Shown here: positions 377-18,549 of the stretch, one piece after another | Layout of the letters: every line of letters starts with the position of its first letter | Numbering within the stretch: the first letter of the stretch is position 1 | Source: Rhodobacteraceae bacterium DSL-40 | GTDB lineage: Bacteria; Pseudomonadota; Alphaproteobacteria; Rhodobacterales; Rhodobacteraceae | DNA length: 64,000 nt | Reading direction: 5' to 3' | Assembly: GCA_003258405.1 (NCBI GenBank) | Contig: QKPN01000001.1 | Location: 682,001 to 746,000 of the forward strand | The notes under the pieces: generated by a model | The model's input: only the letters and a program-made list of their open reading frames with translations | What the model was told of the DNA's origin: nothing | Database searches by the model: none | Program-made: the position numbers and the translations under genes

Positions 377-1972
377 TCAGCCCGGCGCGCCGGCGGCGGC
401 GGCAGCCGGCTCCGCGGCGCGGGCCGGTTCCTTCAGGAGATCGCCCCAGTCGGTGCGATAGGCCATCTCGGCAATGACATCGTCGGGCAGGAATTCGCGG
501 CCCGCCCGGATTTCCCAGCCGCCGCCGAGCCCCTTGTAGAGCGCGACGAGGTTTTCCGAGACCTGGGCACGGGCATCGACGAGGGCGGCCTCGATGCGGA
601 GCGCGGCCTCCTGGGTGTTGAGCACGCGGCTGTAATCGGCGACGCCGTCGCCATATTGCGAGAGCGCGATCTCGGCGGCCTTGCGTGCCGCCTCGGAGGC
701 GGCCTCGAGATAGCCGACCTGGGTGCGGGACTTCTGATAGGCGACGAGCGCGTTCTCGACCTCGGCATAGGCTGCGAGCACGGTGTTCTGGTAATTCGCG
801 ACGAGGCCCTGGAAGGCGGCGTCCTGCGCGCGGACGTTGTTCTGGATCCGGCCGTAGTTGAGCACGTTCCAGACCACGCCGGGGCTTGCGAGCGACGTGA
901 CGCTGTTGGCGGCGAAGAGATCGTTGCCCGAGCTCGCCATGGTGCCGATGCTGCCGGTGAGCACGAACTGCGGGTAGAGGTCGCTGATCGCGACGCCGAC
1001 ATTGGCCGATTGCGCCGCGGCCTCGAGCTCGGCGGCGCGGATGTCGGGCCGCCGCCGCAGGAGCTCGGCCGGGATGCCGACATCGACCTTGCCGTGCGCC
1101 CGCGGGATCGGGCCGGAGCTGCCGAGCAGCTTCGTCATCCGCGACGGCGGCTGGGCGAGCAGGACGGCAAGCGCGTTCTTGGCCTGCTGCAGGTCGCTCT
1201 CCAGCATCGGCACCATGGCGCGGGTGCGGTTGAGAAGCGCGGTCGATTCCTGCACGTCGAGATCGGTGGTCACGCCCTCGTCGAAGCGGTTGCGGGTGAG
1301 GTCATTGCCCTGGGTCTGGAGCGCGATGTTGGCGCGGGTGACGCCGAGCGTCTGCTGCAGCGCGCGGATGTTGATGTAGACCGCGGCGACATCGCCCACG
1401 AGGGTGACGAGCGCGTCGTCGTAATTGGCGACCTCGGCGGCAAGGTTGGCGCGCGCCGCCTGGACCCCGCGGCGCTGGCCGCCCCAGACGTCGAGCTCCC
1501 ATTGCGCATCGAAGGCGGCCTCGGAGGTGGCGAAGGTGAGATCGAGCGGCACGAAGCGCTCGATGTCCTGCACCGGGCCGAGGTTCTCGCTGATCCGGCG
1601 CCGGGAATAGGCCGCCCCGACGGCCTGGGACTGCGGGAATAGCTCACCATGGGCGATGCCGAGCTGGGCGCGGGCCTGCATCACCCGCGCGCCCGCCATC
1701 TGCAGCGTGAGGTTCTGGGCATAGGCCTCGGCCACGAGCCCGTCGAGCACCGGGTCGCGGAAGGTCTCCCACCAGCGCACCACCGGCGCGCTGCGGGTGG
1801 TGAGGCCGGTTGCGGCATCCGGGCCCGGGGCGTTTTCCTCGATCCAGCGGTCGAGGACCGGGCTCGAGGGGCGGGTGAAATCCGGGCCGACCATGGTGCA
1901 GCCGGCGAGGAGGCCCGCGACGGCGGCGCTCCGGAGGAGCACGCCGGCGCGGCTGCGGAACGATCGTCTCAT
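377..1972 (-). CDS. NodT/OprM-type outer membrane efflux lipoprotein
   Basis: 531-residue outer membrane factor of a tripartite efflux system. The N-terminus has a signal peptide ending in a lipobox (LLAGC, Cys about residue 19), and the rest shows the repeated TolC/OprM pattern, including ELLRRRPDIRAAELEAAAQSANVGVA, split by a long helical stretch. I start at the ATG at 1972, which has GGAGG nine bases upstream; an alternative ATG at 1993 overlaps the stop of the upstream membrane-fusion gene by one base. It is the last gene of a set with the YiaV-like fusion protein and the DUF3302 protein. It would form the exit duct for an unknown substrate. Confidence 0.9.
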   Translation of the reverse strand: MRRSFRSRAGVLLRSAAVAGLLAGCTMVGPDFTRPSSPVLDRWIEENAPGPDAATGLTTRSAPVVRWWETFRDPVLDGLVAEAYAQNLTLQMAGARVMQARAQLGIAHGELFPQSQAVGAAYSRRRISENLGPVQDIERFVPLDLTFATSEAAFDAQWELDVWGGQRRGVQAARANLAAEVANYDDALVTLVGDVAAVYINIRALQQTLGVTRANIALQTQGNDLTRNRFDEGVTTDLDVQESTALLNRTRAMVPMLESDLQQAKNALAVLLAQPPSRMTKLLGSSGPIPRAHGKVDVGIPAELLRRRPDIRAAELEAAAQSANVGVAISDLYPQFVLTGSIGTMASSGNDLFAANSVTSLASPGVVWNVLNYGRIQNNVRAQDAAFQGLVANYQNTVLAAYAEVENALVAYQKSRTQVGYLEAASEAARKAAEIALSQYGDGVADYSRVLNTQEAALRIEAALVDARAQVSENLVALYKGLGGGWEIRAGREFLPDDVIAEMAYRTDWGDLLKEPARAAEPAAAAAGAPG

Positions 1973-1992
1973 CTGCCCTGCCCTCCGTGCCA

Positions 1993-3138
1993 TCAGATGT
2001 TCAGCGGGCGAATGAAGTTGCCGAACGAGTAGATGCGGATGTTGATCCGGCGGAGGAACTCGAAGCTCGTGGCGCCACCGGTGTAGATCGCCACCGCCGC
2101 ATGGGCGCCGGCCGGGATCTCGCGGCCGTCGGGCGGATCGAGGCGGATCTGCACCGCGATCCGGCCCGGCAGCTTCGGCAGCATGAAATGCGGCAGCCGC
2201 CCCGAGGGCAGGAGCTGGCCCTGCGAGGTGGCCCACCAGACCGCCTCGACCTTGCCCGGAATGATGTCGCCCGGATAGAGATCGAGCGCGACCTCGACAT
2301 CCTGGCCCGGCTGCACGAACTTGAGGTTCTGCTGGCGGTAGGTCGCGAGCAGGTAGGGGTCCTCGGCGGTCACGAAGCTCGCGATCGCGCCGAGCCGCAT
2401 TTCGCCCACCACGAGCCCCGGGCGGGCCTGCTGCGAGACGATCATGCCGTCTTCGGGGGCGTTGATCGTGGTGTTGTCGAGAAAATACTGCGCCTCGGCG
2501 AGCTGGGCCTTCGCCGCGGCCACGTCCGGGTTCACCCCGTCGACATTGGCATCGACCGCGAGCTGGGCCTTCTGCTGGTTGGCTTCGGCCTCGGAGACGG
2601 CGGCCTTGTCCTGCTCGACCTGGGCGTTCCAGCGGTCCAGCTCGTCCTGGCGCGCGCCGCCCTTGGGCACGAGGTTGCCGTAGCGGGTCTGCTGGGAGAG
2701 CGAATAGGCGAGCTGGGCGTTGGCGCGCGTCACCGCATCCTTCGCCGCGGCGAGATCCTGCTGGAGAATGAGCACGTTCTGCTCGGCGGAAGCGAGCTGC
2801 GCGGTCGCCTGCTCGACCTGGCGGGCGAAGACGGTCTGATCGAAGCGGTAGAGCGGGTCGCCCTTCTTCACCGGCACGTTGGGCTCGACGACCACTTCGG
2901 TGAGGATCGTCGGCTGGGTGAGGCGCGGGATGATCTGGATCGTGCTGCGGATGACATGGGCGTCCATCGAATATGGCTGATAGAAGCGCAGCGTCACGAG
3001 GAAGATCAGCATGAGATGCGCGCCGACCCAGAACGAGACCACGCCCCAGACGATGCTGAACTTGAGGAGCTTGAGCTTGAAGAAGATCAGCCAGACGAAA
3101 ATGATGTAGAAAAGCGTGATCCCGACCGCGATCAGCAT
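1993..3138 (-). CDS. HlyD-type membrane fusion protein, YiaV-like
   Basis: 381 residues. Two hydrophobic segments at the N-terminus (about 2-22 and 30-52) are followed by a biotinyl-lipoyl/beta-barrel architecture with a long helical hairpin between about 105 and 210, as in periplasmic adaptor proteins. The layout, with two N-terminal membrane spans and a neighbouring DUF3302 protein, matches Escherichia coli YiaV/YiaW rather than a classical AcrA. GGAGG lies eight bases before the ATG. The downstream outer membrane lipoprotein overlaps or nearly touches it, so the two are probably co-translated. No energised pump (MFS, RND, ABC) is encoded beside it. Substrate unknown. Confidence 0.85.
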   Translation of the reverse strand: MLIAVGITLFYIIFVWLIFFKLKLLKFSIVWGVVSFWVGAHLMLIFLVTLRFYQPYSMDAHVIRSTIQIIPRLTQPTILTEVVVEPNVPVKKGDPLYRFDQTVFARQVEQATAQLASAEQNVLILQQDLAAAKDAVTRANAQLAYSLSQQTRYGNLVPKGGARQDELDRWNAQVEQDKAAVSEAEANQQKAQLAVDANVDGVNPDVAAAKAQLAEAQYFLDNTTINAPEDGMIVSQQARPGLVVGEMRLGAIASFVTAEDPYLLATYRQQNLKFVQPGQDVEVALDLYPGDIIPGKVEAVWWATSQGQLLPSGRLPHFMLPKLPGRIAVQIRLDPPDGREIPAGAHAAVAIYTGGATSFEFLRRINIRIYSFGNFIRPLNI

Positions 3139-3186
3139 GTGCGGGCCTCCTCTGCTGCCCCGGCGCCGGGCCGGGCGATGTGGCGC

Positions 3187-3546
3187 TCAGCCTTCCTGCG
3201 GACCGGCATCGTCGCCCCCGGGATTTTCGGCTTTCGGTTTGCCGCCGAGCCGCGCGATTTCCGCGCGGACGTGATCGCGTTCCTCTTTCGGCGTGCGGCG
3301 CAGATCGACGGTCATGGAATCGTGGAAGGCCCACATGAAGGCATGCACCCAGGGCACGACGGCGAGGAAGCCCATCCAGCCCATGATCTTCACCGCCTCG
3401 GCATGGGGATGGTTGCGCGCAATAGCGATGCGCCCCGGCAGACCCATGATGAAGAGAATGATCGCGAGAAGGACGACGATCATCAGTATGATCGCGGCGA
3501 ACGTCAGGTAATCGTAAATATTCAGTGAACGGTCGAGCAATTCCAT
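3187..3546 (-). CDS. DUF3302 inner membrane protein, YiaW-like
   Basis: 119 residues. Two membrane spans are visible (about residues 13-35 and 52-72), followed by a charged cytoplasmic tail. The sequence LNIYDYLTFAAIILMI and the later WMGFLAVVPWVHAFMWAFHD are typical of the DUF3302 family, which is usually encoded with a YiaV-type fusion protein. The start is the ATG at 3544-3546 with GGGAGG six bases upstream. First gene of the three-gene set running to 377. Its role is unknown; it may anchor or energise the fusion protein, which would explain why no separate pump gene is present. Confidence 0.85.
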   Translation of the reverse strand: MELLDRSLNIYDYLTFAAIILMIVVLLAIILFIMGLPGRIAIARNHPHAEAVKIMGWMGFLAVVPWVHAFMWAFHDSMTVDLRRTPKEERDHVRAEIARLGGKPKAENPGGDDAGPQEG

Positions 3547-3707
3547 CGCCAGCCTCCCGTGCGTGGATGGATCTGGTGTTCCGGTGTTTCTCTCTCTTGG
3601 GTAGACCGCACCTTTGAGAACACAAAAAACTTTTGGCGGATGTTTTTCCTTTGAGGTGGAAGCTGTTGCAGATCGGTGCCAGTCCCCGGCATGCCGGAGG
3701 GGCCCGC

Positions 3708-4136
3708 TCAGAGCTCGATTTCCAGATGCGGCCGCCCGTCGGCGGTGCGTTCGCGCGAGGTGCCTGCCGGGCCGACAGTGCCCCGCACGCGCCGGCGGAG
3801 GTTCGAGAAGCTCGCGAAGGTCACGACATCGACCGGGCGGTCGAGCGCGAGCTCGAGCCGGTACCAGCCGGGCCGGAGCCGGGCCGCGCGCAGCACCGTC
3901 GCCTCGAAGGGCTGGCCGAGGTAGTGGCCGCGCACCCGGCCGCCGGGCACGAAGCCCGCGGGCGGGCGGCGGGCGATGGCGGCGTGGAGCGCGTTCCAGT
4001 CGCGGAAGCCCTGCGCCCGGGCCACGCGCTCGAGCGCCTGCCCGTGGCTGATCGCCACGCCCTCGGCGGCGAGGGTCGTGCGCAGCCGCCGGGCCTCGGC
4101 CTTGGCTTCGGCCGGGGTGAGACGCGCCGCGCTCAT
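3708..4136 (-). CDS. small glyoxalase-superfamily-like protein
   Basis: 142 residues. The first ~60 residues (TPAEAKAEARRLRTTL, then SHGQALERVARAQGFRDWNAL) form the helical N-terminal segment found in proteins annotated as glyoxalase-superfamily proteins and in some toxin-antitoxin-like small proteins; the rest is a beta-rich domain with GHYLGQPFEATVL. No catalytic metal triad is obvious, so enzymatic activity is doubtful. The ATG overlaps the stop of the MATE gene (ATGA), so it is translationally coupled to the exporter. Function unknown. Confidence 0.7.
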   Translation of the reverse strand: MSAARLTPAEAKAEARRLRTTLAAEGVAISHGQALERVARAQGFRDWNALHAAIARRPPAGFVPGGRVRGHYLGQPFEATVLRAARLRPGWYRLELALDRPVDVVTFASFSNLRRRVRGTVGPAGTSRERTADGRPHLEIEL

Positions 4137-5509
4137 GGCCGGACCGCCCTGGCCCGGGCAGGGTTGCGGGCGCGGATGGCCCGCCAGAGCACCGCGAGCG
4201 TGAGGAGCGCAAGCAGCGCCTCGGCCCCCGGCATCGCCCACCAGATCGCCCGGGGGCCCAACAGATGCGGCAGCAGCACGATCAGCGGCAGGGTGAAAAG
4301 ATAGGGTTTCGCGAGGCCCAGAAGCGCCGCGCGCGGCGCATCGCCGAGCGCCTGGAACCAGGCCGCGACCATCATGTGCGGCCCGGTGAGCACATAGAGC
4401 GTCACCATGACGGGCAGGATCGCCGCGACCTCGGCAATGACCCGGGGATCGGCGACGAAGAGCCCGCCGATCGGCGCGGCGAAGCCCATCGCGAGGGCCT
4501 CCACCGCCGCGCCGTAGACGAAGGCGCAGCCGAGCGCGAGGCGGACCGCGCCGCGCACCCGCTCCGCCAGCCCGGCGCCGTGGTTGTTGCCGACGATGGA
4601 CTGCATCGCCTGCGACAGACCGAGCAGCGGCAGGAAGGCGAAGGTGAGGACGCGCGTGACGATGCCATAGGCCGCCACCGTCGCGGGATAGTCCGGCAGC
4701 GCCAGCGTCTGCAGCCTGAGCAGGATCGCCGAGGAGACCAGCGCGATGCCGAGAAAGCCGAGGCTCTGCGGCGCGCCGAGCGCGAGCATGCCGCCCGAGC
4801 CTGCGAGGGTGGCGTTCCGGCGCAGGGCCGGGAGACCGAGCGCCATGCCGCCGCGCGCGCGGGCGGCGAGGATGATGCCGAGCGCCAGCGCCTGGGCGAG
4901 CACCGTCCCGAAGGCCGAGCCCGCCACGCCGAGATCGAGCCTTGCGATCAGCAGATAGTCGAAGGCAATGTTGCCGAGCGAGACCAGAAGGCTCGCCGCC
5001 GCCATGAAGCCGGCGCGGCCCTCGCTGCGCAGCGCGTCGGAATTGACCGCGAGCAGGAACTGGAGCGGTGCGAAGAGTACGAGGATGCGCAGGTAGAGCG
5101 CCGCCGGTGCGGCCAGCGCGGGATCCGCGCCCGCGACCCTGACGACGAGTGCGCCGCCGAGGAGCGCATGAAGCGCGATCAGCGCCACACCGGCCGCCAG
5201 CGCGAGCCAATGGGCGCGGGCGAAGATCTCGCGCGCCGCATCGCGCCGCCCTGCCCCGAGCAGCCGGGCGAGAATGCTGGCCATGCCGCTCGCGACCAGC
5301 GTCGCGAGTGCGACGATCAGCATGTAGAGCGGGAAGATCAGGGTGACGGCCGCCAAGGCGGCCTCCCCGGCAAAATGCCCGAGGAAGAGGGCATCGACGA
5401 CGGTCAGGAGGCCGTTCATGCCCATCACGAAGATGATCGGCAGCGCCGTGCGGGCAAAGATCGCGGGCAGCGCCCCGCGAAGAAACGGATTGCGGGCAGG
5501 TTCGGGCAT
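4133..5509 (-). CDS. MATE family efflux transporter
   Basis: 458 residues with about twelve hydrophobic segments arranged as two repeats, starting with FARTALPIIFVMGMNGLLTVVDALFLGHFAG, the MATE signature (the GHF/AG motif after the first helix). MATE proteins export cationic drugs or metabolites using a Na+ or H+ gradient in the inner membrane. Substrate cannot be predicted. The last bases overlap the start of the small protein at 3708-4136. Upstream lies a 209-bp gap to the C45 hydrolase gene, long enough for its own promoter, so it need not belong to that operon. Confidence 0.93.
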   Translation of the reverse strand: MPEPARNPFLRGALPAIFARTALPIIFVMGMNGLLTVVDALFLGHFAGEAALAAVTLIFPLYMLIVALATLVASGMASILARLLGAGRRDAAREIFARAHWLALAAGVALIALHALLGGALVVRVAGADPALAAPAALYLRILVLFAPLQFLLAVNSDALRSEGRAGFMAAASLLVSLGNIAFDYLLIARLDLGVAGSAFGTVLAQALALGIILAARARGGMALGLPALRRNATLAGSGGMLALGAPQSLGFLGIALVSSAILLRLQTLALPDYPATVAAYGIVTRVLTFAFLPLLGLSQAMQSIVGNNHGAGLAERVRGAVRLALGCAFVYGAAVEALAMGFAAPIGGLFVADPRVIAEVAAILPVMVTLYVLTGPHMMVAAWFQALGDAPRAALLGLAKPYLFTLPLIVLLPHLLGPRAIWWAMPGAEALLALLTLAVLWRAIRARNPARARAVRP

Positions 5510-5718: not shown

Positions 5719-6732
5719 TCAATGGGGATGGGCGTATTTGTCCGGCGCGTCCTCCGGCAGGACGATCAGCTTCGAGGCGGGCGTGAAGGCGCTGAAGCTC
5801 TGGTTCCAGACGTGATCGGGCCACCAGAGCTGCATCGCCCCTTCCCGCGGCAGGTAGGCGGCGGTGTAGAGCGTGCCGAAGCCCGAGGAAAAGGCCGTGG
5901 AATAGAGCGGCGGCATCAGGAAGGCGGAGATGAAGCGCTCCTCCGATTCCGGATGCTGGGTCAGCCGGTTGAGCAGGAAGCGTTCGCGCTCGACGGTTGC
6001 GGTGAACCGGGCGTGGCTCGACCATTCGACGCGCTCCTGGTGGTTGGTGGCCACCGGGGTGTTGGAGATGATCGTCGGGCGGTCCGGGGTGAGATAGGCG
6101 GTGACGTAGCGCCGCGCCGGATCGAGCACGGTGACGTTGTAGCTCATGTGGCAGGGCACGCGGCAGAGCACCGCGACGGCCTCGTCGAGCGTCGAGCAGG
6201 TCTGCAGGATATAGCGCAGGATGAGCGGCACGCCGAAGCCCTCGCCCACCTCGCGCCGTCCGCCGAAGGTGAGCGAGACGACGAGGCCCGCGTCGTTCAT
6301 GCCGTCCACGAGACCGAAGAGCCCGTCGCTCATGCCGATCACCTGCCGCCCTCCCCAGGCGGTCCGGAGCAGGATCGCGTCGAAGGCCCGCGGGTGGTAG
6401 TCGTAGTTGCGCACCAGGAGCGGCCGGTCGCCCTGCCAGATCGCCTGGCTGCAGCCGGAGAGATAGCGCGGCGGGCAGTAGAAGCTCAGGAACCGCGCCT
6501 GGCTGTCGCTGCCGCCGACAAGCTCGCAGAGCGTCTCGTAGAGCGGCACAATCTCGGGCATGTGGGTCCGGAGCGCCCGGAGGCACTCCAGATAGGTTGG
6601 CCGGGCCGCGAGCCCCTCCCGCCCCCACCATCGCCGGTAGGCGGGCCAGAACGTGTTGAAAACCCCGGCCCAGATCGGGCCGGGTTGGTCTTCGCTGATG
6701 CCGCGGAACCGGATGTTCATGAGGTGTTTCAC
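5719..6732 (-). CDS. C45-type Ntn-hydrolase (acyltransferase/amidase)
   Basis: 337 residues. The core SGCSQAIWQ, then LLVRNYDYHP, matches the C45 family (acyl-coenzyme A:6-aminopenicillanic acid acyltransferase type), in which the precursor cleaves itself before a Cys that becomes the N-terminal nucleophile. Here that residue would be Cys94, preceded by Gly93. Downstream, SNTPVATNHQE contains the expected Asn-rich active-site loop. Family members hydrolyse or transfer amide-linked acyl groups. The start is a GTG overlapping the stop of the ATP-grasp gene (GTGA); an ATG twelve bases later at 6720 is possible. Last gene of the nitrilase-decarboxylase-ligase operon, where an amide-cleaving role fits. 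Confidence 0.88.
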   Translation of the reverse strand: MKHLMNIRFRGISEDQPGPIWAGVFNTFWPAYRRWWGREGLAARPTYLECLRALRTHMPEIVPLYETLCELVGGSDSQARFLSFYCPPRYLSGCSQAIWQGDRPLLVRNYDYHPRAFDAILLRTAWGGRQVIGMSDGLFGLVDGMNDAGLVVSLTFGGRREVGEGFGVPLILRYILQTCSTLDEAVAVLCRVPCHMSYNVTVLDPARRYVTAYLTPDRPTIISNTPVATNHQERVEWSSHARFTATVERERFLLNRLTQHPESEERFISAFLMPPLYSTAFSSGFGTLYTAAYLPREGAMQLWWPDHVWNQSFSAFTPASKLIVLPEDAPDKYAHPH

Positions 6733-8180
6733 ATGATCTTGAAGGCAGGCTCCTCGAAGGCCCTGGCGGCGCTGAGCGGGCGTGCCGAGAACGAGTTCTT
6801 GATGCCGTCGATCCAGGCCTTGGCCCGGTCGGTCAGCTGGAAGGACTTCGTCATCGAGCGGCCGCGCATCACGAGAATGCCGAGATCGGCGCCCTCGTAG
6901 CGGTAGTCGCCATCCTTGAGGATGCGCAGGAAGAACGCCTCGTCCTCGGTTTCCACCGCGCGCCGGTGATAGTCGAAGCGGTCGAAGGCCACGGTGCCGT
7001 CCGGATGCATCTTGTAGATGCCGCTCTGCGGCGCCTCGGTGATGATGTCGACGCTGTCATCGGTGTGCTTGATCACCATCTGCGTCCAGCTGTCGATCAT
7101 GTCGGGATCGGACCAGCGGGCGTTGAGCTCCTCGACGTCGAAGCGGAACGGCTTCTTCGAGAATTCCAGCAGGTGGAACAGGAAGAGCGGCGCGTCGGCA
7201 TGGGCGAAGGCGGCGTGGTTGGTCATCGAGCTTGCGCCGGTGATGCGCGGGTTGAGCTCGCCGAGCCAGAGTTCGCCCGTCTTCTTGTCGATGAGGAAGT
7301 CGAGCTCGAAATAGCCGCGGTAGCCGCCCTTGCGGAGCTGCTCGCCGAACTTGAAGGTGAGCTCGCGCGCCTGCTCGCGGACCTTGGGCTGGAAGGCGGT
7401 CGAGAAGATCTCGTTGCCGCACCAGCCGCCGCGGTAGGGCGTGAGCTCCTTGAAGCCCACGAGCTCGGTCATCAGCGGCCCGACGATGGTGCCCTCGCTG
7501 GTGGTGCAGGCCTCGATCGCCGAACCGCGGCAATCGATGCGCTTCATGATCTTGATCTCGCCCTCGCCGACGATCTCGTGCCCATGCTTGCCGAAATCGG
7601 CTTCGGACTTGATGAAGAAGGTGGTGTGGCCGCTGTCGCCGAAGGCCGACTGCAGCACGAGGTCGTGGCCGAGGCCCGCCTTGTCGCAGATCTCCTGGAG
7701 ATGCGCATAGCTCTTCACCTCGGAGAGCGTGTTCGGCACCGAGGGCACGCCCGCCTTGTCGCCGATCCGGACGGTCTCGATCTTGTTGTCGCAGCGCTCG
7801 CGCAGGCTCGCCTTGGGGAACCAGATCTCGCCGCCGAGTTCCTTGACCAGCGCCTCGGTCTTCTCGTTGAACATCAGGAAGACGAATTTCGGCTTGCCGC
7901 CGCGGGCCTTGACGAAATCGACGACTTCCTTGTGCTGCAGCAGGTAGTTGTTGATGTCCTCGATGGACTGGAACTCGTCATGCGGCATCTCGGAGGGCAC
8001 GAGCACGTTGGGGTGCCGCCCGTCGAAGCAATCCATGTAGCAGATATACTTGAAGTTTTTCACCCACTCGTCGATTCCGAGCAAGTTGAAGTTCGTCGCC
8101 GACACGAAATATATCGGGTCCTCGTTGGTGTGAAAATACCGCCTGATTTCAGATATGTTCTTCAGGGTTTTCTTCGGCAT
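6729..8180 (-). CDS. ATP-grasp ligase (biotin carboxylase-like)
   Basis: 483 residues. An N-terminal alpha/beta domain (1-120) precedes an ATP-grasp domain with a glycine-rich loop GDSGHTTF (181-188) and the metal-binding GELNPRITG (307-315); the last ~100 residues form a separate domain. ATP-grasp enzymes activate a carboxylate as acyl phosphate and join it to an amine or thiol. No biotinyl or carboxyltransferase partner is nearby, so biotin carboxylase activity is unlikely. It sits 29 bases downstream of a PLP decarboxylase and overlaps a C45 hydrolase. Inference: it ligates an amino acid or carboxylic acid to the amine made by the decarboxylase. Codon use around the start is AT-richer than its neighbours. 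Confidence 0.85.
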   Translation of the reverse strand: MPKKTLKNISEIRRYFHTNEDPIYFVSATNFNLLGIDEWVKNFKYICYMDCFDGRHPNVLVPSEMPHDEFQSIEDINNYLLQHKEVVDFVKARGGKPKFVFLMFNEKTEALVKELGGEIWFPKASLRERCDNKIETVRIGDKAGVPSVPNTLSEVKSYAHLQEICDKAGLGHDLVLQSAFGDSGHTTFFIKSEADFGKHGHEIVGEGEIKIMKRIDCRGSAIEACTTSEGTIVGPLMTELVGFKELTPYRGGWCGNEIFSTAFQPKVREQARELTFKFGEQLRKGGYRGYFELDFLIDKKTGELWLGELNPRITGASSMTNHAAFAHADAPLFLFHLLEFSKKPFRFDVEELNARWSDPDMIDSWTQMVIKHTDDSVDIITEAPQSGIYKMHPDGTVAFDRFDYHRRAVETEDEAFFLRILKDGDYRYEGADLGILVMRGRSMTKSFQLTDRAKAWIDGIKNSFSARPLSAARAFEEPAFKIM

Positions 8181-8209
8181 AGTCTTTTCCTCTTGTCCCT
8201 CGGTCTGTT

Positions 8210-10990
8210 TCAGGTTTGGGCGACGGAATTCAGGGCCTCGGTCGTGAAGACGCGAAGCCCGAGGTCAGGCCGGTAGCCGTGAATCTCGCTCACATCGAGT
8301 GCACGCATGAAGGTCAGGATCTCGCGGCTGATGACCTGGCCCGGAACCAGGATCGGAAATCCGGGCGGATAGGGAATGATGAACGACGCGGAAACCAGCT
8401 CCTCCCCGCTTTCCAGCTTCTGCAGCAGCTCGCCGTTCAGATCGAGATAGTCGCAATTGTCCTCGTCATAGGCGAGGAAGAACGCGGAGCGGATATCGCC
8501 CTCCGGGGTATCGCTCTTGCGGAACGCGGAGTGGAACCGGCTGAAGTCCGGCAGCGGCGGCACATGCTCGACAAGGCTCTTCACACGGTTCTCGAAGGAG
8601 CGCCGCTCCATCTTGGAGGCATCGTCAAGGAGGTCGTCCAGATCCTTCGCGATGCCCACCAGCACCTCGATCAGATAGGCGATCGAGGAGCGTGTCGTGC
8701 CGATGTTGGTCATGAAGAGCACGCTGTTGCGCGAGGTCTTGTTGATCTGGATCCCGTGCTTGTCCATCAGGATCTGGGTCTTGAACGTATCACCGTCCCA
8801 GCCCGTCCCGCCGACGGCGAGCGTGATCTTGGTCGGATCGAGCACGAACTCGTCGGTGGCCCAGCTGTTCCAGGCATCGGTCCAGCCGTGCTGTGCGTCG
8901 TAGTAGGACTCGAGCCCGCTGTCGCGATACTCCGGCGGGATCATGTCGGCGACCGTCAGCACGCGGAAGTATTTCTGCAGCAGCGGATGAGACCCGATCG
9001 CCCGGCGCAGCGACATCGCGCTGTCGATCTGGCGCTGCACGAACTCGTAGCCCTCGAGCTCGACCTGGCGCCGGCCGACATCGAGCGAGGCGATGATCTG
9101 GTAGTTCGGCGAGGTCGAGGTGTGGGTCATGTAGGCCTCGTGGAAGGCCTGTTCCGTCTCACCCTTGAAGTCCTGGTCGTAGACATGGATCATCGAGCCC
9201 TGCCGCAACGAGGTCAGGGTCTTGTGGGTCGATTGCGTCGCATAGACCCGGACCCGCGCATCGGGTGGCGCGATGAGCCGGGTGTTGAGGCGGATGTCGC
9301 CATCCTCGTCTTCCGCAAGCCGCGCCTGCTGCTCCTCGTAGGCCTGGACCCGCTCCGGGGTCCGGAGCACGCGGCGCAGCGACGCCGCAGCGTGCATTGC
9401 CGTCCGCTGGCGATAGACCGGATTGAAGCGCGCGAAGGCGAACCACGCCTCGTCCCAGAGGAAGATCAGGTCCTTCTTGATCGCAAGGCATTCCTCCATG
9501 ACGCGCTCGACATTGTAGATGAGCCCGTCGAAGGTGCAGTTCGTCAGCAGCACCATGCGCACCTTGTCGAGCTTGCCCGCGGCCTCGAGCTCAAGCAGCT
9601 TGTGCTTGATCTCCCGAAGCGTGACCGCGCCATACATGGAGTGTTCGTTCAGCGGATAGCTGTCCATGTAGACGACCTTGGCCCCGGCCAGCACCATGCC
9701 GTAGTGGTGCGACTTGTGGCAGTCGCGGTCCACGAGCACGATGTCGCCGGGCCGGACCAGCGCCTGCACCACGATCTTGTTGCAGGTCGAGGTGCCGTTG
9801 GTGGCAAAGAAGGTCTGCTTCGAGCCGAAGGCACGCGCCGCCGCCTCCTGCGCCTTCTTTATCGGGCCGCGCGGCTCGAGAAGGCTGTCGAGGCCGCCGC
9901 TCGTCGCCGAGGTTTCCGCAAGGAAGATGTTGGGGCCGTAGAAGGCGCCCATGTCCTGGATCCAGTGGCTCCGGGTGATCGACTTGCCGCGGCTGATCGG
10001 CATGGCGTGGAAGACGCCCGTCGGCTGCTTGGAATATTCCTTCAGCGCCGTGAAGAACGGCGACTTGTAGCGGCTGTTGACGCCGCGCAGGATGTTGAGG
10101 TGTAGCTCGAGGAAGTCTTCCTGATTGTAGAAGACCCGGCGGCAGCTGCCGAGATCGAGCCCCGCGATCGCCTCCGCCGAACGGTCGGTGACGAGATAGG
10201 TGTCGAGCTCGGGCCGGATCTTGGCGATGAGCCGGCAGGTCTCGGGCCCGTATTCCTCGGGCCGCAACCCGTCGAGATCCTCTTCCTCGCTGGCCGATCT
10301 GAGATATTTGCTCAGCAGCGAGAGGTTGTTGCGCGACTTGAGCGTGAGGCCGGGCCGGACGACCACGGCCTGAACGTTGTAGTTGAAGAGGATACCGATC
10401 AGGGCGTCCTCGAGGCTCGGCACGACGACCGCCTCGTAGATGAAGGCGTCCTCCGGCCTGCGGACATGCTGAAGACTGGTGCGCAGCCAGCGCTCCTGCT
10501 GATCGCCGAGACTGTCGACGATCAGCACCTCGAAATAGGGTCGGCCGAGCGCGCGGGCCTCGGGGGAGAGGGCGACCTCGTCCTCGAAATCCTCGCTGTC
10601 GCTGTCTTCCGCGACGAGGGGAATCGTGCGGCGGCGATAGGCGCCCGAGGTGAGCGCCCGCACCACGCGGCGGACCGCGTGGGAGAAATCGTCGATCTTC
10701 CGCTGCTCGAGGAGCCGCCGCATGTATTCGTAGGCGGTCGCCCCCGGAAAGGCCCAGTAGGTCTCGATCGGGGCAAGCGCCGACATGAGCTCGTCGGCGT
10801 CCTGCAGCAGCTTCTTGCCCTTGCGGCTGTCGAGACTGGTGACGGAAAGACCCTCGACGGCGGCGCGTAATGCGCTCCAGCGGTCGGCGCGGAGCTGCGT
10901 TGCACTGTAGTAGTCGCCGATCGAGGGCAGTTGACGCTCTGCGGCCTCAGTGGCCGACAGAGTCGATGCGGTGTTTGGCGGTTTGTTCAT
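8210..10990 (-). CDS. Orn/Lys/Arg decarboxylase, class I (PLP fold type I), long form
   Basis: 926 residues, longer than E. coli AdiA or LdcI (about 715-755). A ~140-residue N-terminal extension precedes a receiver-like wing domain (PYFEVLIVDSLGDQQ), then the aspartate-aminotransferase-fold PLP domain with FLAETSATSGGLDSLL, the cofactor aspartate in FLWDEAWFAF, and the Schiff-base lysine Lys590 in ATQSTHKTL, then the C-terminal domain ending with IIPYPPGFPILVPGQ, a family hallmark. It decarboxylates a basic amino acid to a di- or guanidino-amine. Substrate (Arg, Lys or Orn) cannot be set by eye. Second gene of the operon, 32 bases after the carbon-nitrogen hydrolase. Confidence 0.93.
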   Translation of the reverse strand: MNKPPNTASTLSATEAAERQLPSIGDYYSATQLRADRWSALRAAVEGLSVTSLDSRKGKKLLQDADELMSALAPIETYWAFPGATAYEYMRRLLEQRKIDDFSHAVRRVVRALTSGAYRRRTIPLVAEDSDSEDFEDEVALSPEARALGRPYFEVLIVDSLGDQQERWLRTSLQHVRRPEDAFIYEAVVVPSLEDALIGILFNYNVQAVVVRPGLTLKSRNNLSLLSKYLRSASEEEDLDGLRPEEYGPETCRLIAKIRPELDTYLVTDRSAEAIAGLDLGSCRRVFYNQEDFLELHLNILRGVNSRYKSPFFTALKEYSKQPTGVFHAMPISRGKSITRSHWIQDMGAFYGPNIFLAETSATSGGLDSLLEPRGPIKKAQEAAARAFGSKQTFFATNGTSTCNKIVVQALVRPGDIVLVDRDCHKSHHYGMVLAGAKVVYMDSYPLNEHSMYGAVTLREIKHKLLELEAAGKLDKVRMVLLTNCTFDGLIYNVERVMEECLAIKKDLIFLWDEAWFAFARFNPVYRQRTAMHAAASLRRVLRTPERVQAYEEQQARLAEDEDGDIRLNTRLIAPPDARVRVYATQSTHKTLTSLRQGSMIHVYDQDFKGETEQAFHEAYMTHTSTSPNYQIIASLDVGRRQVELEGYEFVQRQIDSAMSLRRAIGSHPLLQKYFRVLTVADMIPPEYRDSGLESYYDAQHGWTDAWNSWATDEFVLDPTKITLAVGGTGWDGDTFKTQILMDKHGIQINKTSRNSVLFMTNIGTTRSSIAYLIEVLVGIAKDLDDLLDDASKMERRSFENRVKSLVEHVPPLPDFSRFHSAFRKSDTPEGDIRSAFFLAYDEDNCDYLDLNGELLQKLESGEELVSASFIIPYPPGFPILVPGQVISREILTFMRALDVSEIHGYRPDLGLRVFTTEALNSVAQT

Positions 10991-11022
10991 TGATCTTTTT
11001 TGCTCCCTGTCCTTTTCACCCG

Positions 11023-12015
11023 TCAGCCTGATGCGTGACTGTGAAGCGGAGGCTGGGGCGCCATCGCCTCATCGCCCTGACCTGCCCAGTCGGCATCGGC
11101 CTTGGCTTCGGTCACGCTCAGCATGGTACGCGGGTCGGCGCTGGCAAGCCCAGCACGCGAGCCCTGCCGCTGGATCTCCAGCGGGCCGAGCCGCTGCAGA
11201 TAGGCATCCGCGCCGCTGCTTCGGTCATAAACCGGGAAGTCGACCTCGCGGTCGCGGAAGCTCTTCAGCACCTGCCCGAGGCCGCGGAGGCCGAATTCGC
11301 GCTGGCGCCGCACGAGGTCGAGGTCGATCTCGATCGGGAACATGTCGTCCTGACCGGCCGACTGGTGCAGCACCGCGGCGGAGGGATCGACGACGAGCGA
11401 ACGGCCCATGCCGCCCGAGCCGAGGCCGTTGATGTCGAAGACGTAGCACTGGAACTGTGCCGCGGTCGCGCGCGCGATCGAGATCTCCGCCTCGCGGTCG
11501 GTCGTCCCGGTCAGCACCGGATGCAGAAGCACCTCGACGCCCTGGCTGGTGAGGTGGCGCGTCGTCTCGGGGAACCAGATGTCGTAGCAGATCGAGAGCC
11601 CGAAGCGGCCGACCTCCGGCACGTCGAAGATGCAGAACTCGTTGCCCGCCGAGATGCCGACCTCGTAGGGCCGGAACGGAAACATCTTCGAGTAGCGTGC
11701 GACGATCTCGCCCTCGGGGTTGATGACCACGGAGGTGTTGAGAATGCGGCCGTCGTCCTTGCGCTCGAACATCGAGCCGGGAACGAGCCAGAGCTTGTGC
11801 TGGTGCGCCTTGTGCTGGAAGCGCTCGATCGCCTCGTTCGGAAATGGCTTGGCGAACCGGTGCAGCGGCCCATAGGGCGCCAGTTCGCTGAAGACTGCCA
11901 TCTGCGTCCAAGGGAAGCGCGCCATCAGGATGTCGGTGCGATGAAGCATCGCCTCGACGTTCGACTGAAGCGCATCGACCTGCATCTGGATGCCGGCAAT
12001 CGCGAAGGGTGTCAT
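11023..12015 (-). CDS. carbon-nitrogen hydrolase (nitrilase superfamily amidase)
   Basis: 330 residues. The Glu-Lys-Cys triad is visible: Glu44 in VFSELAPYG, Lys110 in RYSKMFPFRPYE, Cys143 in SICYDIWFPE. Members hydrolyse amides, N-carbamoyl groups or nitriles; N-carbamoylputrescine amidase and omega-amidase belong here. The last ~40 residues after the domain are low-complexity. AGGAG lies eleven bases before the ATG. It is first in the operon with the decarboxylase, ATP-grasp and C45 genes, so its substrate is probably an amide or carbamoyl derivative of the amine made by the decarboxylase. An agmatine deiminase, expected for the carbamoylputrescine route, is not in the window. Confidence 0.9.
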   Translation of the reverse strand: MTPFAIAGIQMQVDALQSNVEAMLHRTDILMARFPWTQMAVFSELAPYGPLHRFAKPFPNEAIERFQHKAHQHKLWLVPGSMFERKDDGRILNTSVVINPEGEIVARYSKMFPFRPYEVGISAGNEFCIFDVPEVGRFGLSICYDIWFPETTRHLTSQGVEVLLHPVLTGTTDREAEISIARATAAQFQCYVFDINGLGSGGMGRSLVVDPSAAVLHQSAGQDDMFPIEIDLDLVRRQREFGLRGLGQVLKSFRDREVDFPVYDRSSGADAYLQRLGPLEIQRQGSRAGLASADPRTMLSVTEAKADADWAGQGDEAMAPQPPLHSHASG

Positions 12016-12400: not shown

Positions 12401-13225
12401 TCAGAAACTGCGCGGCGTGTTGATCCAGAGCAGGACCGTCACGTCATCGTGAGCGTTGCTCCAGGCATGTTTCCGGCGGCTGCCGAAGTAGAGCGAGTCG
12501 CCTGGACCAAGCACGTGAAATTCCTCCTCGTCGAGCACGATCTCGATGCATCCCGAGAGCACGTGGAGGAACTCTTCGCCGTCGTGGCTGTAGGCCCCCT
12601 CGCTCGCCGCGCCCGGCGCGAGGACGAAGCGGTGGCAATCCATGCTGCGCTCGCCTTCGGCCAGCAACTGCACCGTGACGCCCGACGAGCTCTCCGGCCA
12701 GACCTGCCATTCCCCGGCCCGGACGAGCGCGCGCGCGCAGTCCTGCTCGCCCGAAAGCGTCGAGACGGTGGTGCCGAAATATTCCGCAAGGTCGTGCATG
12801 AGCCGGAAGCTCACCCCCTGCGAGGTGCGCTCGAAGGTGGAAACGACGGAGGCCGAGGTGCCGAGATCCTCGGCGACCTGCTCGAGCGTAAGACCGGCGG
12901 AGCGGCGGAGTGCCCGCAACTTGCCGCCGATCTCGATCGGCCGCAGCGGCTCGAAGAGCGCGGCATTTTCAAACTCTTCGCCCTCCGCGGCAAGCGCCTC
13001 GCGGATCGCCGCGGGATTGAGCCCGCGCCGCGAGCGATACCAGCAAATGCGCTGCGCCCGCCGCACGTCCTTGGCGCGGTACTGCCGGTGGCCCGTCGGC
13101 GTACGCTCCGGCGTGATCAGTCCCTGATTCTCCCAAAGCCGCAGCGTCGAGGCGGAAACGCCAGCCAGACGCGCGACTTCGGTGATCTTGAACACGGCCG
13201 GGGCCGCCTGGCTCGTCTCCGGCAT
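12401..13225 (-). CDS. MerR-XRE-cupin transcriptional regulator
   Basis: 274 residues with three domains in line. Residues about 12-80 are a MerR-type winged helix (FKITEVARLAGVSASTLRLWENQGL, GHRQYRAKDVRRAQRI). About 95-155 is a second, XRE-type helix-turn-helix (LRALRRSAGLTLEQVAEDLGTSASVVSTFER). About 185-270 is a cupin sensor domain (HDGEEFLHVLSG...LGPGDSLYFGS). XRE-cupin proteins such as PuuR control polyamine and GABA use. Start chosen at the ATG at 13225 with GAGGAA just upstream; a TTG further up at 13270 is possible. It is divergent from gabT and upstream of the amide/decarboxylase operon, so it probably controls one or both. Confidence 0.88.
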   Translation of the reverse strand: MPETSQAAPAVFKITEVARLAGVSASTLRLWENQGLITPERTPTGHRQYRAKDVRRAQRICWYRSRRGLNPAAIREALAAEGEEFENAALFEPLRPIEIGGKLRALRRSAGLTLEQVAEDLGTSASVVSTFERTSQGVSFRLMHDLAEYFGTTVSTLSGEQDCARALVRAGEWQVWPESSSGVTVQLLAEGERSMDCHRFVLAPGAASEGAYSHDGEEFLHVLSGCIEIVLDEEEFHVLGPGDSLYFGSRRKHAWSNAHDDVTVLLWINTPRSF

Positions 13226-13283
13226 CTTTCCTCGATTTTCGGCTGCTGAAAATTCCGATTGCGTTTCCAAGACAAAAATGTAA

Positions 13284-13296: not shown

Positions 13297-13347
13297 CAAT
13301 AAGCTACAGAATAAATGCAAAAATTCTGTCGAGATTCAGAGGTTCCG

Positions 13348-14649
13348 ATGACCGCAGCACCGTTGACCGACCGCAAGAACGCCGCGATTGCACGCGGTGT
13401 CGCCATGGCAACCCAGATCTACGCCGAACGCGCCCAGAACGCCGAGCTCTGGGATACCGAAGGCAAACGCTATATCGATTTCGGCACCGGCATTGCCGTT
13501 CTGAACACCGGCCATCGCCATCCGAAGGTCATGGCGGCGGTGCAGGATCAGATCGACCGCTTCACCCATACCTGCGCGCAGGTCGTGCCTTACGAGAACT
13601 ACGTGCATCTGGCCGAGCGGCTCAATGCGCTGACCCCGGGCGACCATGCGAAGAAGTCGATCTTCCTCACCACCGGCGCCGAAGCGGTCGAGAACGCGAT
13701 CAAGATCGCGCGCGCCGCAACCGGCCGGCAGGCGGTGATCGCCTTTGGCGGCGGCTTCCACGGCCGGACCTTCATGGGCATGGCACTGACCGGCAAGGTC
13801 GTTCCCTACAAGGTGGGCTTCGGCCCGATGCCGGGCGATGTCTTCCACGCCCCGTTCCCGAACCCGCTGCACGGCGTCAGCATCGAGCAGTCGCTCGACG
13901 CGATCGCCCGTCTCTTTGCCGCCGATGTCGAACCGTCGCGGGTCGCTGCGTTCATCATCGAGCCGGTTCAGGGCGAAGGCGGGTTCTATCCCGTGCCCGC
14001 GGCCTTCATGCGGGCGCTGCGCGAGATCTGCGACAAGCACGGCATCCTGCTCATCGCCGACGAGATCCAGACCGGCTTTGCCCGCACCGGCAAGCTCTTC
14101 GCGATGGACCACTACGATGTGATCCCCGATCTCATGACCATGGCCAAGAGCCTCGCGGGCGGCTTCCCGGTTTCCGCCGTCACCGGCCGGGCCGAGCTCA
14201 TGGACGCCCCTGCCCCCGGCGGCCTCGGCGGCACCTATGCCGGCAGCCCGATCGGCATCGCCGCGGCCCATGCCGTGCTCGACGTCATCGAGGAGGAAGG
14301 GCTCTGCGCACGCGCGACCGTGCTCGGCGACCAGCTCAAGGCACGCCTCGAATCCCTGCGCGGAAGGGTGCCGGAAATCGCCGATATCCGCGGCCCGGGC
14401 TTCATGAACGCCATCGAGTTCAACGATCCCGAGACCGGCGCGCCAAGCCCCGAGTTCACCACGGCCTTCCGCCTCAACGCACTCTCCAAGGGTCTGATCC
14501 TGCTGAGCTGCGGCGTCTTCGGCAACGTCATCCGCTTCCTTGCGCCGATGACGATCGAGGACGACGTGTTTGCCGAGGCGCTGGACATCATCGAGGCTTC
14601 CCTGCTTGAAGTCTCCCAGGGCGCGAAGGCCCTCGAGGCCACCGCCTGA
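13348..14649 (+). CDS. gabT: 4-aminobutyrate aminotransferase
   Basis: 433 residues, class III PLP aminotransferase of usual length. The cofactor region FLTTGAEAVENAIKIAR, the catalytic IADEIQTGFARTGKLFA and the Schiff-base lysine Lys267 in MTMAKSLAGGFPVS are all present. The enzyme moves the amino group of GABA to 2-oxoglutarate, giving succinic semialdehyde. The ATG at 13348 has AGAGG eight bases upstream. It is followed by gabD, which oxidises its product, and is divergent from a PuuR-like regulator, so it fits polyamine or GABA catabolism. A closely related omega-amino-acid substrate such as 5-aminovalerate is possible. Confidence 0.93.
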   Translation: MTAAPLTDRKNAAIARGVAMATQIYAERAQNAELWDTEGKRYIDFGTGIAVLNTGHRHPKVMAAVQDQIDRFTHTCAQVVPYENYVHLAERLNALTPGDHAKKSIFLTTGAEAVENAIKIARAATGRQAVIAFGGGFHGRTFMGMALTGKVVPYKVGFGPMPGDVFHAPFPNPLHGVSIEQSLDAIARLFAADVEPSRVAAFIIEPVQGEGGFYPVPAAFMRALREICDKHGILLIADEIQTGFARTGKLFAMDHYDVIPDLMTMAKSLAGGFPVSAVTGRAELMDAPAPGGLGGTYAGSPIGIAAAHAVLDVIEEEGLCARATVLGDQLKARLESLRGRVPEIADIRGPGFMNAIEFNDPETGAPSPEFTTAFRLNALSKGLILLSCGVFGNVIRFLAPMTIEDDVFAEALDIIEASLLEVSQGAKALEATA

Positions 14650-16801: not shown

Positions 16802-16929
16802 ACCGACCCCTATTCCAGACTGTTCCGGGAACGTCCATATAACCGTTAACCATCAATGCCTTGGGTCTCTGTGTATTCTTGACGGCTCCACGATTGTCCG
16901 CCATGTTCCCAAAATAATTGTTGGGCGTG

Positions 16930-18337: not shown

Positions 18338-18549
18338 GCGACGTTACCTCAGCCGGAGTAGGCATTGGGGTTGGCATCAAGTTCCCGGCCCCGGCGCAGA
18401 AGCCCAAGCCCACAGAACCCGAGCCCGCGAAAGAAGAAGCCCGGCGGGCAACCCCGCCGGGCCAAGGAGAACGTAACCGTAACACCGATTGCGCAGGCGT
18501 GGAGAACCTGTGCCGAGCCACCGGGAGCCCCGATGACATGCCCGAATAG
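18334..18549 (+). CDS. small proline-rich protein, unknown
   Basis: 71 residues, beginning with a glycine-rich stretch (GVGIGVGIKF) followed by a Pro/Lys/Glu-rich segment. Its ATG overlaps the AlpA stop (ATGA), and its end overlaps the primase start by 17 bases, so coupled translation is likely. A perfect 10-bp hairpin lies inside it, so the stretch may act mainly as a regulatory leader. No family recognised. Confidence 0.45.
   Translation: MSDVTSAGVGIGVGIKFPAPAQKPKPTEPEPAKEEARRATPPGQGERNRNTDCAGVENLCRATGSPDDMPE
18439..18462 (+). promoter_or_regulatory. strong hairpin in the leader of the primase gene
   Basis: GCCCGGCGGG (18439-18448), loop CAAC, CCCGCCGGGC (18453-18462): a perfect 10-bp stem inside the small gene just upstream of the primase. 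An AAGGAG follows directly. It could attenuate transcription or translation into the replication gene, as leader terminators do in P4. Confidence 0.45.

What the first reader, a model, noticed from the sequence alone, without database searches (positions are those of the whole stretch)
5719..12015. Operon joining an amidase, a PLP decarboxylase, an ATP-grasp ligase and a C45 hydrolase: a possible undescribed amine pathway
Seen: four minus-strand genes with gaps of 32 and 29 bases and one overlap, next to a cupin-type regulator and gabT-gabD. Known: the Puu route ligates glutamate to putrescine (PuuA), oxidises it, removes glutamate (PuuD) and uses PuuE plus a semialdehyde dehydrogenase under an XRE-cupin repressor. 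Inference: here the ATP-grasp could replace PuuA, the C45 or nitrilase-type enzyme could replace PuuD, and the decarboxylase could supply the amine. No oxidase is present, so a biosynthetic acyl-amine product is an alternative.
Basis: partly seen in the sequence, partly recalled or inferred. Interest (0 to 1): 0.78.

Follow-up and report, generated by a model that had tools for sequence, protein, structure and literature searches.

The report
Conserved GABA-linked decarboxylase-ligase-amidase operon
Four neighbouring genes for a decarboxylase, an amide-forming ligase and two amide-splitting enzymes travel together through many proteobacteria, often beside genes that make or consume the small amino acid GABA, and appear to form a metabolic route whose exact chemistry is still unknown.

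Summary
Four minus-strand genes (nitrilase-type amidase, OKR-fold PLP decarboxylase, ATP-grasp ligase, C45 Ntn-hydrolase; window 5719-12015) lie 32, 29 and -4 bases apart. All four occur together in 76 of 80 GTDB loci read (three others are cut by contig ends). The order differs in another class, and partial blocks occur in rhizobia and arginine-catabolism islands.

The Puu reading is only partly supported. No PuuA-, PuuB- or PuuD-type gene is among the nine window proteins scanned. The ligase lacks the catalytic glutamate of biotin carboxylases. The decarboxylase has Gln where arginine and lysine decarboxylases have Glu (PGE to PGQ); its closest solved relative, Rv2531c, has no known substrate.

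Context points to C3-C4 omega-amino acids. Over-cut-off GabT is in 9 of 11 relatives with the ligase and 5 of 50 without (p = 5e-6). Arginine-to-GABA genes stand in the decarboxylase's place in three plasmid loci; a 3-guanidinopropionase-like gene precedes the block in one genus. In one family of another class the block lies inside the ectoine-degradation operon.

Best model: the decarboxylase supplies GABA or beta-alanine, ligase and C45 make and break an omega-aminoacyl amide, GabT-GabD burn the product. Substrates are inferred. My literature searches found no description.

The parts
5719..6732 (-). C45 / AAT-family autoproteolytic Ntn amide hydrolase (or acyltransferase), predicted nucleophile Cys94 after Gly93
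   Evidence: PF03417, NF040521; Cys in 116 of 116 aligned; AF2 model pLDDT 85, best PDB fold 2x1c isopenicillin N acyltransferase, E 1.1e-12
6729..8180 (-). ATP-grasp ligase, named 'biotin carboxylase' by NF005096 but lacking the biotin-carboxylase catalytic Glu
   Evidence: NF005096 over cut-off; generic ATP-grasp fold; Ala/Cys/Ile at the BC Glu position in 138 of 138 rows
8210..10990 (-). PLP decarboxylase of the OKR (AAT-fold) family, Rv2531c-like, PLP Lys590, PGQ motif (Gln885)
   Evidence: PF01276; PDB 9n0n E 4.5e-245; K590 in 116 of 116, Q885 in 115 of 116 with 1 gap
11023..12015 (-). Nitrilase-superfamily (CN_hydrolase) amidase, Glu44-Lys110-Cys143
   Evidence: PF00795; triad in 116 of 116
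12401..13270 (-). MerR + XRE + cupin regulator, probable controller
   Evidence: PF13411, PF13560/PF01381, PF07883; XRE-cupin regulators lie near the block in 28 of 80 loci
13315..14649 (+). gabT, 4-aminobutyrate transaminase
   Evidence: TIGR00700 and NF005692 over cut-off; only TIGR00700 copy over cut-off in the genome
14814..16289 (+). gabD, succinate-semialdehyde dehydrogenase
   Evidence: TIGR01780 725 vs 646 bits; below the NF008415 cut-off, 794 vs 828

Best explanation
A conserved, probably catabolic module around C3-C4 omega-amino acids (GABA, beta-alanine). Shown by comparison: the four genes behave as one unit, and the ligase co-occurs with GABA-transaminase genes. Inferred: the decarboxylase removes the alpha-carboxyl of an acidic amino acid (glutamate to GABA, or aspartate to beta-alanine). 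The ATP-grasp enzyme activates a carboxylate as an acyl phosphate and joins it to an amine, giving an amide that contains the omega-amino acid. The C45 Ntn-hydrolase (and perhaps the nitrilase) splits that amide. GabT and GabD then pass the freed GABA to succinate. In other loci the decarboxylase's place is taken by arginine to 4-guanidinobutyrate to GABA, or the block is joined by a 3-guanidinopropionate to beta-alanine enzyme, as alternative suppliers of the omega-amino acid.
For: Block conserved in 76 of 80 loci, order differing between classes; distance matrices of the four proteins correlate at r = 0.92-0.96 in 116 sets, which shared ancestry alone would also give. GabT over cut-off in 9 of 11 ligase-bearing and 5 of 50 ligase-free relatives, one-sided Fisher p = 5.3e-6; within genus and family 9 of 11 vs 4 of 26, p = 2.4e-4; 26 other genera at one genome each, 4 of 5 vs 4 of 21, p = 0.02. 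gabT (50% or more identical) within the locus in 31 of 80. Arginine islands keep ligase + C45 + nitrilase and have, in the decarboxylase's place, AruI, D-amino-acid dehydrogenase and an agmatinase-family gene (guanidinobutyrase-like in L190, the one tested): 3 plasmid loci. A 3-guanidinopropionase-like gene (tested in L126; the others 88-98% identical) precedes the block in 5 of 5 ligase-bearing loci of one genus. TAXI-TRAP importer genes in 37-38 of 80 loci; one TAXI protein is glutamate-specific, others carry other solutes (PMC11574862, passages seen). A Glu/Leu/Phe/Val dehydrogenase near the decarboxylase on two rhizobial plasmids; in L185 its best models are glutamate dehydrogenases, below cut-off. 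Decarboxylase paralogues away from a ligase sit beside aspartate-alanine antiporters in 4 of 6 contexts read. PGE to PGQ.
Against: No enzyme was assayed. Relatives are not independent samples. Two of 11 ligase-bearing relatives lack an over-cut-off GabT (one is an 85% complete draft), and in 4 of the 9 others GabT is on another contig. gabT is not seen within the locus in 49 of 80 (some loci are short). In one family of another class the block lies inside the ectoine-degradation operon in 21 of 21 loci read, which a GABA-only reading does not predict. Contexts with ectB or the ectoine genes suit 2,4-diaminobutyrate as well. 'Replacement' of the decarboxylase in arginine islands is by position only: the Roseateles sp. 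XES5 plasmid has a 56% identical decarboxylase elsewhere. The nitrilase is missing from rhizobial blocks and L137/L138, so it is not essential, or acts elsewhere. Why a ligase and an amidase should act on the same bond in one operon is unexplained. The role of the PGE glutamate is recalled, not tested.
Confidence: 0.38

Rival explanations
1. Puu-like amine catabolism: the decarboxylase makes a diamine (putrescine, or 1,3-diaminopropane from 2,4-diaminobutyrate), the ATP-grasp acylates it, a class III aminotransferase plus an aldehyde dehydrogenase oxidise the free end, C45 removes the acyl group, and GabT-GabD take the omega-amino acid.
For: OKR decarboxylases normally act on basic amino acids (recalled). 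A second class III aminotransferase-like gene (25-40% identical to GabT) is in 17 of 80 loci, one of them NF005685 761 vs 485 bits. In the doe operon the dehydrogenase doeC and aminotransferase doeD follow the decarboxylase. The decarboxylase is near ectB and, as a paralogue, next to eut/doe genes.
Against: No oxidase among the window proteins scanned; the second aminotransferase is in a minority of loci. Arginine islands with ligase + C45 need no diamine. PGQ replaces PGE in the decarboxylase.
Confidence: 0.25
2. Protected decarboxylation: the ligase makes a gamma-glutamyl amide, the decarboxylase removes its alpha-carboxyl (Gln in PGQ recognising the amide), and C45 releases GABA, resembling the glutamylate-decarboxylate-deprotect order of butirosin side-chain synthesis (recalled; one search found no paper).
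For: Uses three of the four enzymes in one line; fits GabT coupling, PGQ, glutamate-linked neighbours.
Against: Does not explain arginine islands that keep ligase + C45 without a decarboxylase beside them. Paralogues away from a ligase also have PGQ, so PGQ cannot be tied to a ligase product.
Confidence: 0.12
3. Ectoine side-branch: in the doe operon the block handles 2,4-diaminobutyrate or the N-gamma-acetyl by-product of ectoine hydrolase, whose fate is called unclear in PMC5924519; the copy in the window's family would do the same.
For: Block between doeX and doeC on the doe strand in 21 of 21 loci read. [quoted passage not shown] One of the 80 loci (L084) has eutB- and eutC-like genes near the block.
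Against: The same gap holds 0.8-4.5 kb of other sequence in 8 of 20 block-free loci, so the site is insertion-prone. In the window's genus and family DoeB does not track the ligase (4 of 11 vs 5 of 26, p = 0.24); the own genome's DoeB is on another contig.
Confidence: 0.12
4. Biosynthetic: the genes build a GABA- or beta-alanine-containing amide (dipeptide or acyl-amine) for osmotic, symbiotic or signalling use, with C45 acting as an acyltransferase rather than a hydrolase.
For: The best C45 fold match is an acyltransferase. One rhizobial copy lies beside nifHDKE on a plasmid. ATP-grasp dipeptide ligases are among the fold matches (3vot, 3vmm). In the window a MATE efflux gene (4133-5509, TIGR00797 158 vs 147 bits) follows C45 on the same strand.
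Against: Importer genes (TAXI-TRAP, dipeptide ABC) and GabT are the commoner neighbours. The window's MATE protein found no match in the loci.
Confidence: 0.1

Closest known systems
E. coli Puu pathway (gamma-glutamylated putrescine; recalled)
   Same: Ligase plus amide hydrolase logic is possible; GABA transaminase and semialdehyde dehydrogenase; XRE-cupin part of the regulator (43 bits to PuuR, cut-off 211)
   Different: ATP-grasp instead of a glutamine-synthetase-type PuuA; no PuuB oxidase among the window proteins scanned; Ntn C45 or nitrilase instead of class I amidotransferase-type PuuD; a decarboxylase is part of the unit
Rv2531c-type OKR decarboxylases (PDB 9n0n/9n0o/9n0p)
   Same: Relative over residues 31-921, same PGQ motif
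   Different: Rv2531c has no known substrate (PMC12910592, passages seen); whether its genome carries the ligase or C45 was not tested
Ectoine degradation doeABX-doeCD (Halomonas elongata, PMC3187862, passages seen)
   Same: Hosts the block between doeX and doeC in one family
   Different: H. elongata itself has doeX next to doeC without the block; ectoine degradation does not need it
D-arginine / 2-ketoarginine / 4-guanidinobutyrate route (AruI, GbuA)
   Same: Ligase, C45 and nitrilase sit in the same island in Shinella, Roseateles sp. XES5 and Sinorhizobium sp. RAC02 plasmids
   Different: The route to GABA is complete without them (inference)
Isopenicillin N acyltransferase (2x1c) and other C45/Ntn amidases
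   Same: Fold and Gly-Cys site
   Different: Only 15% identity; substrate unknown

Membership tests
Puu pathway | Glutamine-synthetase-type gamma-glutamylputrescine synthetase PuuA | tested here: not met
   The ligase is ATP-grasp; none among 9 window proteins scanned; rest of the genome not searched
Puu pathway | FAD amine oxidase PuuB | tested here: not met
   None among 9 window proteins scanned; rest of the genome not searched
Puu pathway | Class I amidotransferase-type hydrolase PuuD | tested here: not met
   The hydrolases are PF03417 and PF00795; rest of the genome not searched
Puu pathway | GABA transaminase and semialdehyde dehydrogenase | tested here: met
   Window genes; GabT co-occurrence
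Biotin carboxylase (name given by NF005096) | Sequence over the NF005096 cut-off | tested here: met
   753 vs 684 bits
Biotin carboxylase (name given by NF005096) | Catalytic Glu after the E-x-N-x-R motif (Glu296 of E. coli; number and role recalled) | tested here: not met
   Pyruvate carboxylase 'npriqvEh' aligns with 'npritgAs'; Ala 131, Cys 5, Ile 2 of 138 rows
Arg/Lys/Orn decarboxylase of the OKR family | PLP lysine in STHK | tested here: met
   116 of 116
Arg/Lys/Orn decarboxylase of the OKR family | Glu in PGE near the C-terminus | tested here: not met
   E in arginine (6q6i) and lysine (9e0m) enzymes, Q here; ornithine enzymes were not shown. Q in 154 of 157 rows, 3 without the pattern (some genomes twice)
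Arg/Lys/Orn decarboxylase of the OKR family | Activity on a basic amino acid | not testable with these tools
   No assay
C45 Ntn-hydrolase | Family score, fold and Gly-Cys site | tested here: met
Nitrilase superfamily | Glu-Lys-Cys triad | tested here: met
   116 of 116
Ectoine degradation unit | Co-occurrence with DoeB | tested here: inconclusive
   All 21 genomes with the 85-100% identical ligase in one family have DoeB, against 65 of 81 overall; no association in 37 genomes of the window's genus and family, p = 0.24

The most novel reading that the evidence does not exclude
The large OKR-fold decarboxylases with a PGQ motif, including the structurally solved but functionally unassigned Rv2531c, are a distinct family that decarboxylates acidic amino acids. 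In this operon one of them feeds a ligase/Ntn-hydrolase cycle that makes and breaks an omega-aminoacyl (GABA or beta-alanyl) amide new to bacterial metabolism as far as I know, a shared node linking glutamate, arginine and ectoine catabolism.
Probability: 0.18. Interest if true: 0.8.

Novelty: new variant of a known kind. Interest (0 to 1): 0.55.

Why it matters
The ligase has at least 474 relatives in the GTDB contigs (80 neighbourhoods were read), and the genes of the unit carry generic or wrong names ('biotin carboxylase', 'decarboxylase', 'C45 family peptidase', 'carbon-nitrogen hydrolase'). My paper searches found no account of it. The contexts narrow its chemistry to C3-C4 omega-amino acids and diamines, which a small panel of assays can decide. 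An answer would correct a mis-annotation, suggest a substrate class for a decarboxylase family with a solved structure and no known substrate, and could bear on the open question of gamma-ADABA in ectoine catabolism.

Tried and rejected
Biotin carboxylase reading of the ligase: rejected on the missing catalytic Glu. Fold comparison to choose the ligase type: inconclusive; biotin carboxylases, PurK and L-amino-acid ligases score about alike. Ectoine as the general function: not supported in the window's genus and family (p = 0.24), and the insertion site also takes other sequence (8 of 20 block-free loci; DnaJ-like, FdhD/formate-dehydrogenase-like and other inserts named by eye). Literature for the cluster: searches gave no description (listings and some passages seen); (butirosin) found nothing. 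The cryo-EM paper on Rv2531c is not held. TAXI binding residues: the module's TAXI protein is closest to 8s4j (389 bits) and less close to 1us4 and 8u79 (about 209 and 207); glutamate versus another acid cannot be told apart. Order samples of G051 and G115 (17 and 1 genomes) added nothing. Stand-alone C45 contexts (L196; L199) gave no substrate hint. The regex counts for the nitrilase triad were too strict (31 to 60 of 121 missed) and were replaced by aligned counts. A paper on lysine decarboxylase (passages) gave no role for the PGE glutamate.
Full report
OBSERVATION. The window holds four minus-strand genes with the gaps stated: C45 5719-6732, ATP-grasp 6729-8180, OKR decarboxylase 8210-10990, nitrilase-type 11023-12015. 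Domain and family scores are clear. The regulator is a MerR-XRE-cupin fusion. The adjacent gabT and gabD pass family cut-offs, though gabD is under the cut-off of one SSADH model.

CONSERVATION. The ligase occurs in 11 of 61 relatives, 8 of 289 genomes sampled from the class and 11 of 398 from the phylum. Of 80 GTDB loci (the best of at least 474, mostly named as Rhodobacterales), 76 hold all four genes; 74 of these are in the window's order, with L038 and L100 reordered. Three more are cut by contig ends and one (L102) lacks the nitrilase. In the class/phylum sample of 16 fetched loci, 7 have the same order and 3 have nitrilase-ligase-C45-decarboxylase (L132, L133, L135). L136 has all four genes in another arrangement, L137 and L138 lack the nitrilase, two are cut by contig ends, and L139 has a partial ligase hit with C45. 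The four proteins' distance matrices correlate at 0.92-0.96 in 116 full sets; shared ancestry alone could give this.

LINK TO GABA. Over-cut-off GabT is present in 14 of 61 relatives: 9 of the 11 with the ligase and 5 of the 50 without, one-sided p = 5.3e-6. Restricted to the genus and family it is 9 of 11 against 4 of 26, p = 2.4e-4. With one genome for each of 26 other genera it is 4 of 5 against 4 of 21, p = 0.02. Two of the 11 (G003, G010) carry only a 47-48% identical ligase. Comparing coordinates, GabT lies within 10 kb of the ligase in 5 of the 9 genomes and on other contigs in 4. Within the 80 loci, gabT is in 31, TAXI receptor genes in 37, TRAP permease in 38, XRE-cupin regulators in 28 and UspA in 20. 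A gene family placed like the 'FMN-binding glutamate synthase' of Roseobacter ponti is in 17; that name rests on position only (no NCBIfam match at 1e-70).

OTHER CONTEXTS. (a) In one family of another class (22 of 81 genomes with the ligase), all 19 loci fetched, plus L132 and L133, have doeA-doeB-doeX-[nitrilase-ligase-C45-decarboxylase]-doeC-doeD; L163 has further genes in the gap. DoeA, DoeB, EutB and the EhuR regulator of L132 pass their NCBIfam cut-offs. The 22nd genome has only a 48% identical ligase with a C45 gene and no doe genes in reach (L181). In 20 block-free loci the doeX-doeC gap is 201-354 bases in 10, 788-4493 in 8, and doeC was out of reach in 2; so the site also takes other sequence. 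(b) Three plasmid loci (Shinella L182, Roseateles sp. XES5 L189, Sinorhizobium sp. RAC02 L190) have ligase and C45, with the nitrilase on the opposite strand, in an arginine island. Annotation (L182, L189) or family scores (L190) give 5-guanidino-2-oxopentanoate decarboxylase and D-amino-acid dehydrogenase, with a racemase; the L190 ureohydrolase is guanidinobutyrase-like (508 bits to 3nio, next 303). No decarboxylase of our type is beside them, but the XES5 plasmid has one elsewhere. L025 has a type-2 ligase with the nitrilase near an Orr-like racemase (334 vs cut-off 480) and an agmatinase-like gene 46% identical to that of L126. (c) In one genus 5 of 5 ligase-bearing loci have a 3-guanidinopropionase-like gene (L126: 442 bits to 3nip, next 325; others 88-98% identical) upstream; two other genera of that family have gabT (L230) or neither (L231). 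(d) Of five rhizobial plasmid loci, four have decarboxylase-ligase-C45 without the nitrilase, and L184 has its C45 elsewhere on the plasmid; L185 and L191 continue with dipeptide-type ABC genes and an amidase, and L191 lies beside nifHDKE. L184 and L185 have a Glu/Leu/Phe/Val dehydrogenase nearby. Some rhizobial copies look incomplete. (e) Decarboxylase paralogues away from a ligase lie beside aspartate-alanine antiporters in 4 of 6 contexts read (L192, L193, L194, L198; not L195, L197); L198 also adjoins eut/doe genes, and L197 has ectB.

ENZYMES. Ligase: AF2 model pLDDT 77, pTM 0.82; fold matches are generic ATP-grasp. The biotin-carboxylase catalytic Glu is Ala, Cys or Ile in 138 of 138 rows. 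C45: model pLDDT 85, best match isopenicillin N acyltransferase. Decarboxylase: PLP Lys590 in 116 of 116; Gln885 replaces the Glu of arginine and lysine decarboxylases in 115 of 116, with one gap. That this Glu contacts the substrate's distal amino group in related enzymes is recalled and uncertain. Closest solved relative: Rv2531c (identified through PMC12910592 and PDB 9n0o, passages seen), whose substrate is unknown.

READING. The contexts share GABA, beta-alanine, or molecules one step from them. The simplest common picture is that ligase and C45 make and break an amide containing such an omega-amino acid, while the decarboxylase or a ureohydrolase route supplies it and GabT-GabD consume it. 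An acidic substrate for the decarboxylase would fit PGQ, the antiporter pairing, the Glu/Leu/Phe/Val dehydrogenase and the TAXI importer, one member of which is glutamate-specific in Vibrio cholerae while others carry other solutes (PMC11574862, passages seen). Against it: ectB and ectoine neighbours fit 2,4-diaminobutyrate equally, and the OKR family otherwise acts on basic amino acids (recalled). I put the specific model at 0.38, the Puu-like model at 0.25, and the rest on the other rivals.

NOVELTY. Every enzyme belongs to a known family; the combination and its GABA coupling were not found in print (one held library only, listings and passages).

Noticed in passing
L026:9943-10935 (G000:C180) and L196:7992-9086: A second C45 gene in the own genome (44% identical) follows an esterase-like gene (by eye); in Sulfitobacter pontiacus a C45 gene (43%) follows a CopG regulator and a PHB depolymerase-family esterase. 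Looks like a separate conserved unit.
   Followed up: partly
window 12401-13270: The regulator fuses a MerR HTH, an XRE HTH and a cupin domain, while 28 of 80 related loci have a short XRE-cupin protein; an unusual three-part architecture.
   Followed up: no
window 4133-5509: A MATE efflux gene follows C45 on the same strand; its protein found no match in the loci, so it is probably not part of the unit.
   Followed up: partly
L192, L193, L194, L198: PGQ decarboxylases beside aspartate-alanine antiporters, once with aspartate 4-decarboxylase and an HdeA/HdeB-family gene: may be a decarboxylase-antiporter acid-resistance pair; no literature search was made for it.
   Followed up: partly
L184, L188, L191 and Sinorhizobium medicae records: Several rhizobial plasmid copies of the decarboxylase, ligase or C45 match only in part or in pieces, as if decaying.
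   Followed up: no
L025:14294-16033: Racemase-like protein of 579 aa: Orr-like N-terminus and a weak arginase-like stretch at residues 444-547.
   Followed up: no
doeX-doeC gap in L200-L219: In 8 of 20 block-free relatives the gap between doeX and doeC holds other sequence (by eye DnaJ-like, FdhD/formate-dehydrogenase-like, membrane protein, VOC-like): an insertion-prone spot.
   Followed up: partly
window 16918-17829 and 18365-21196: A tyrosine-integrase-like ORF followed by a large ORF that looks like a plasmid or phage primase/helicase (both by eye), close downstream of gabD; a possible mobile-element edge.
   Followed up: no
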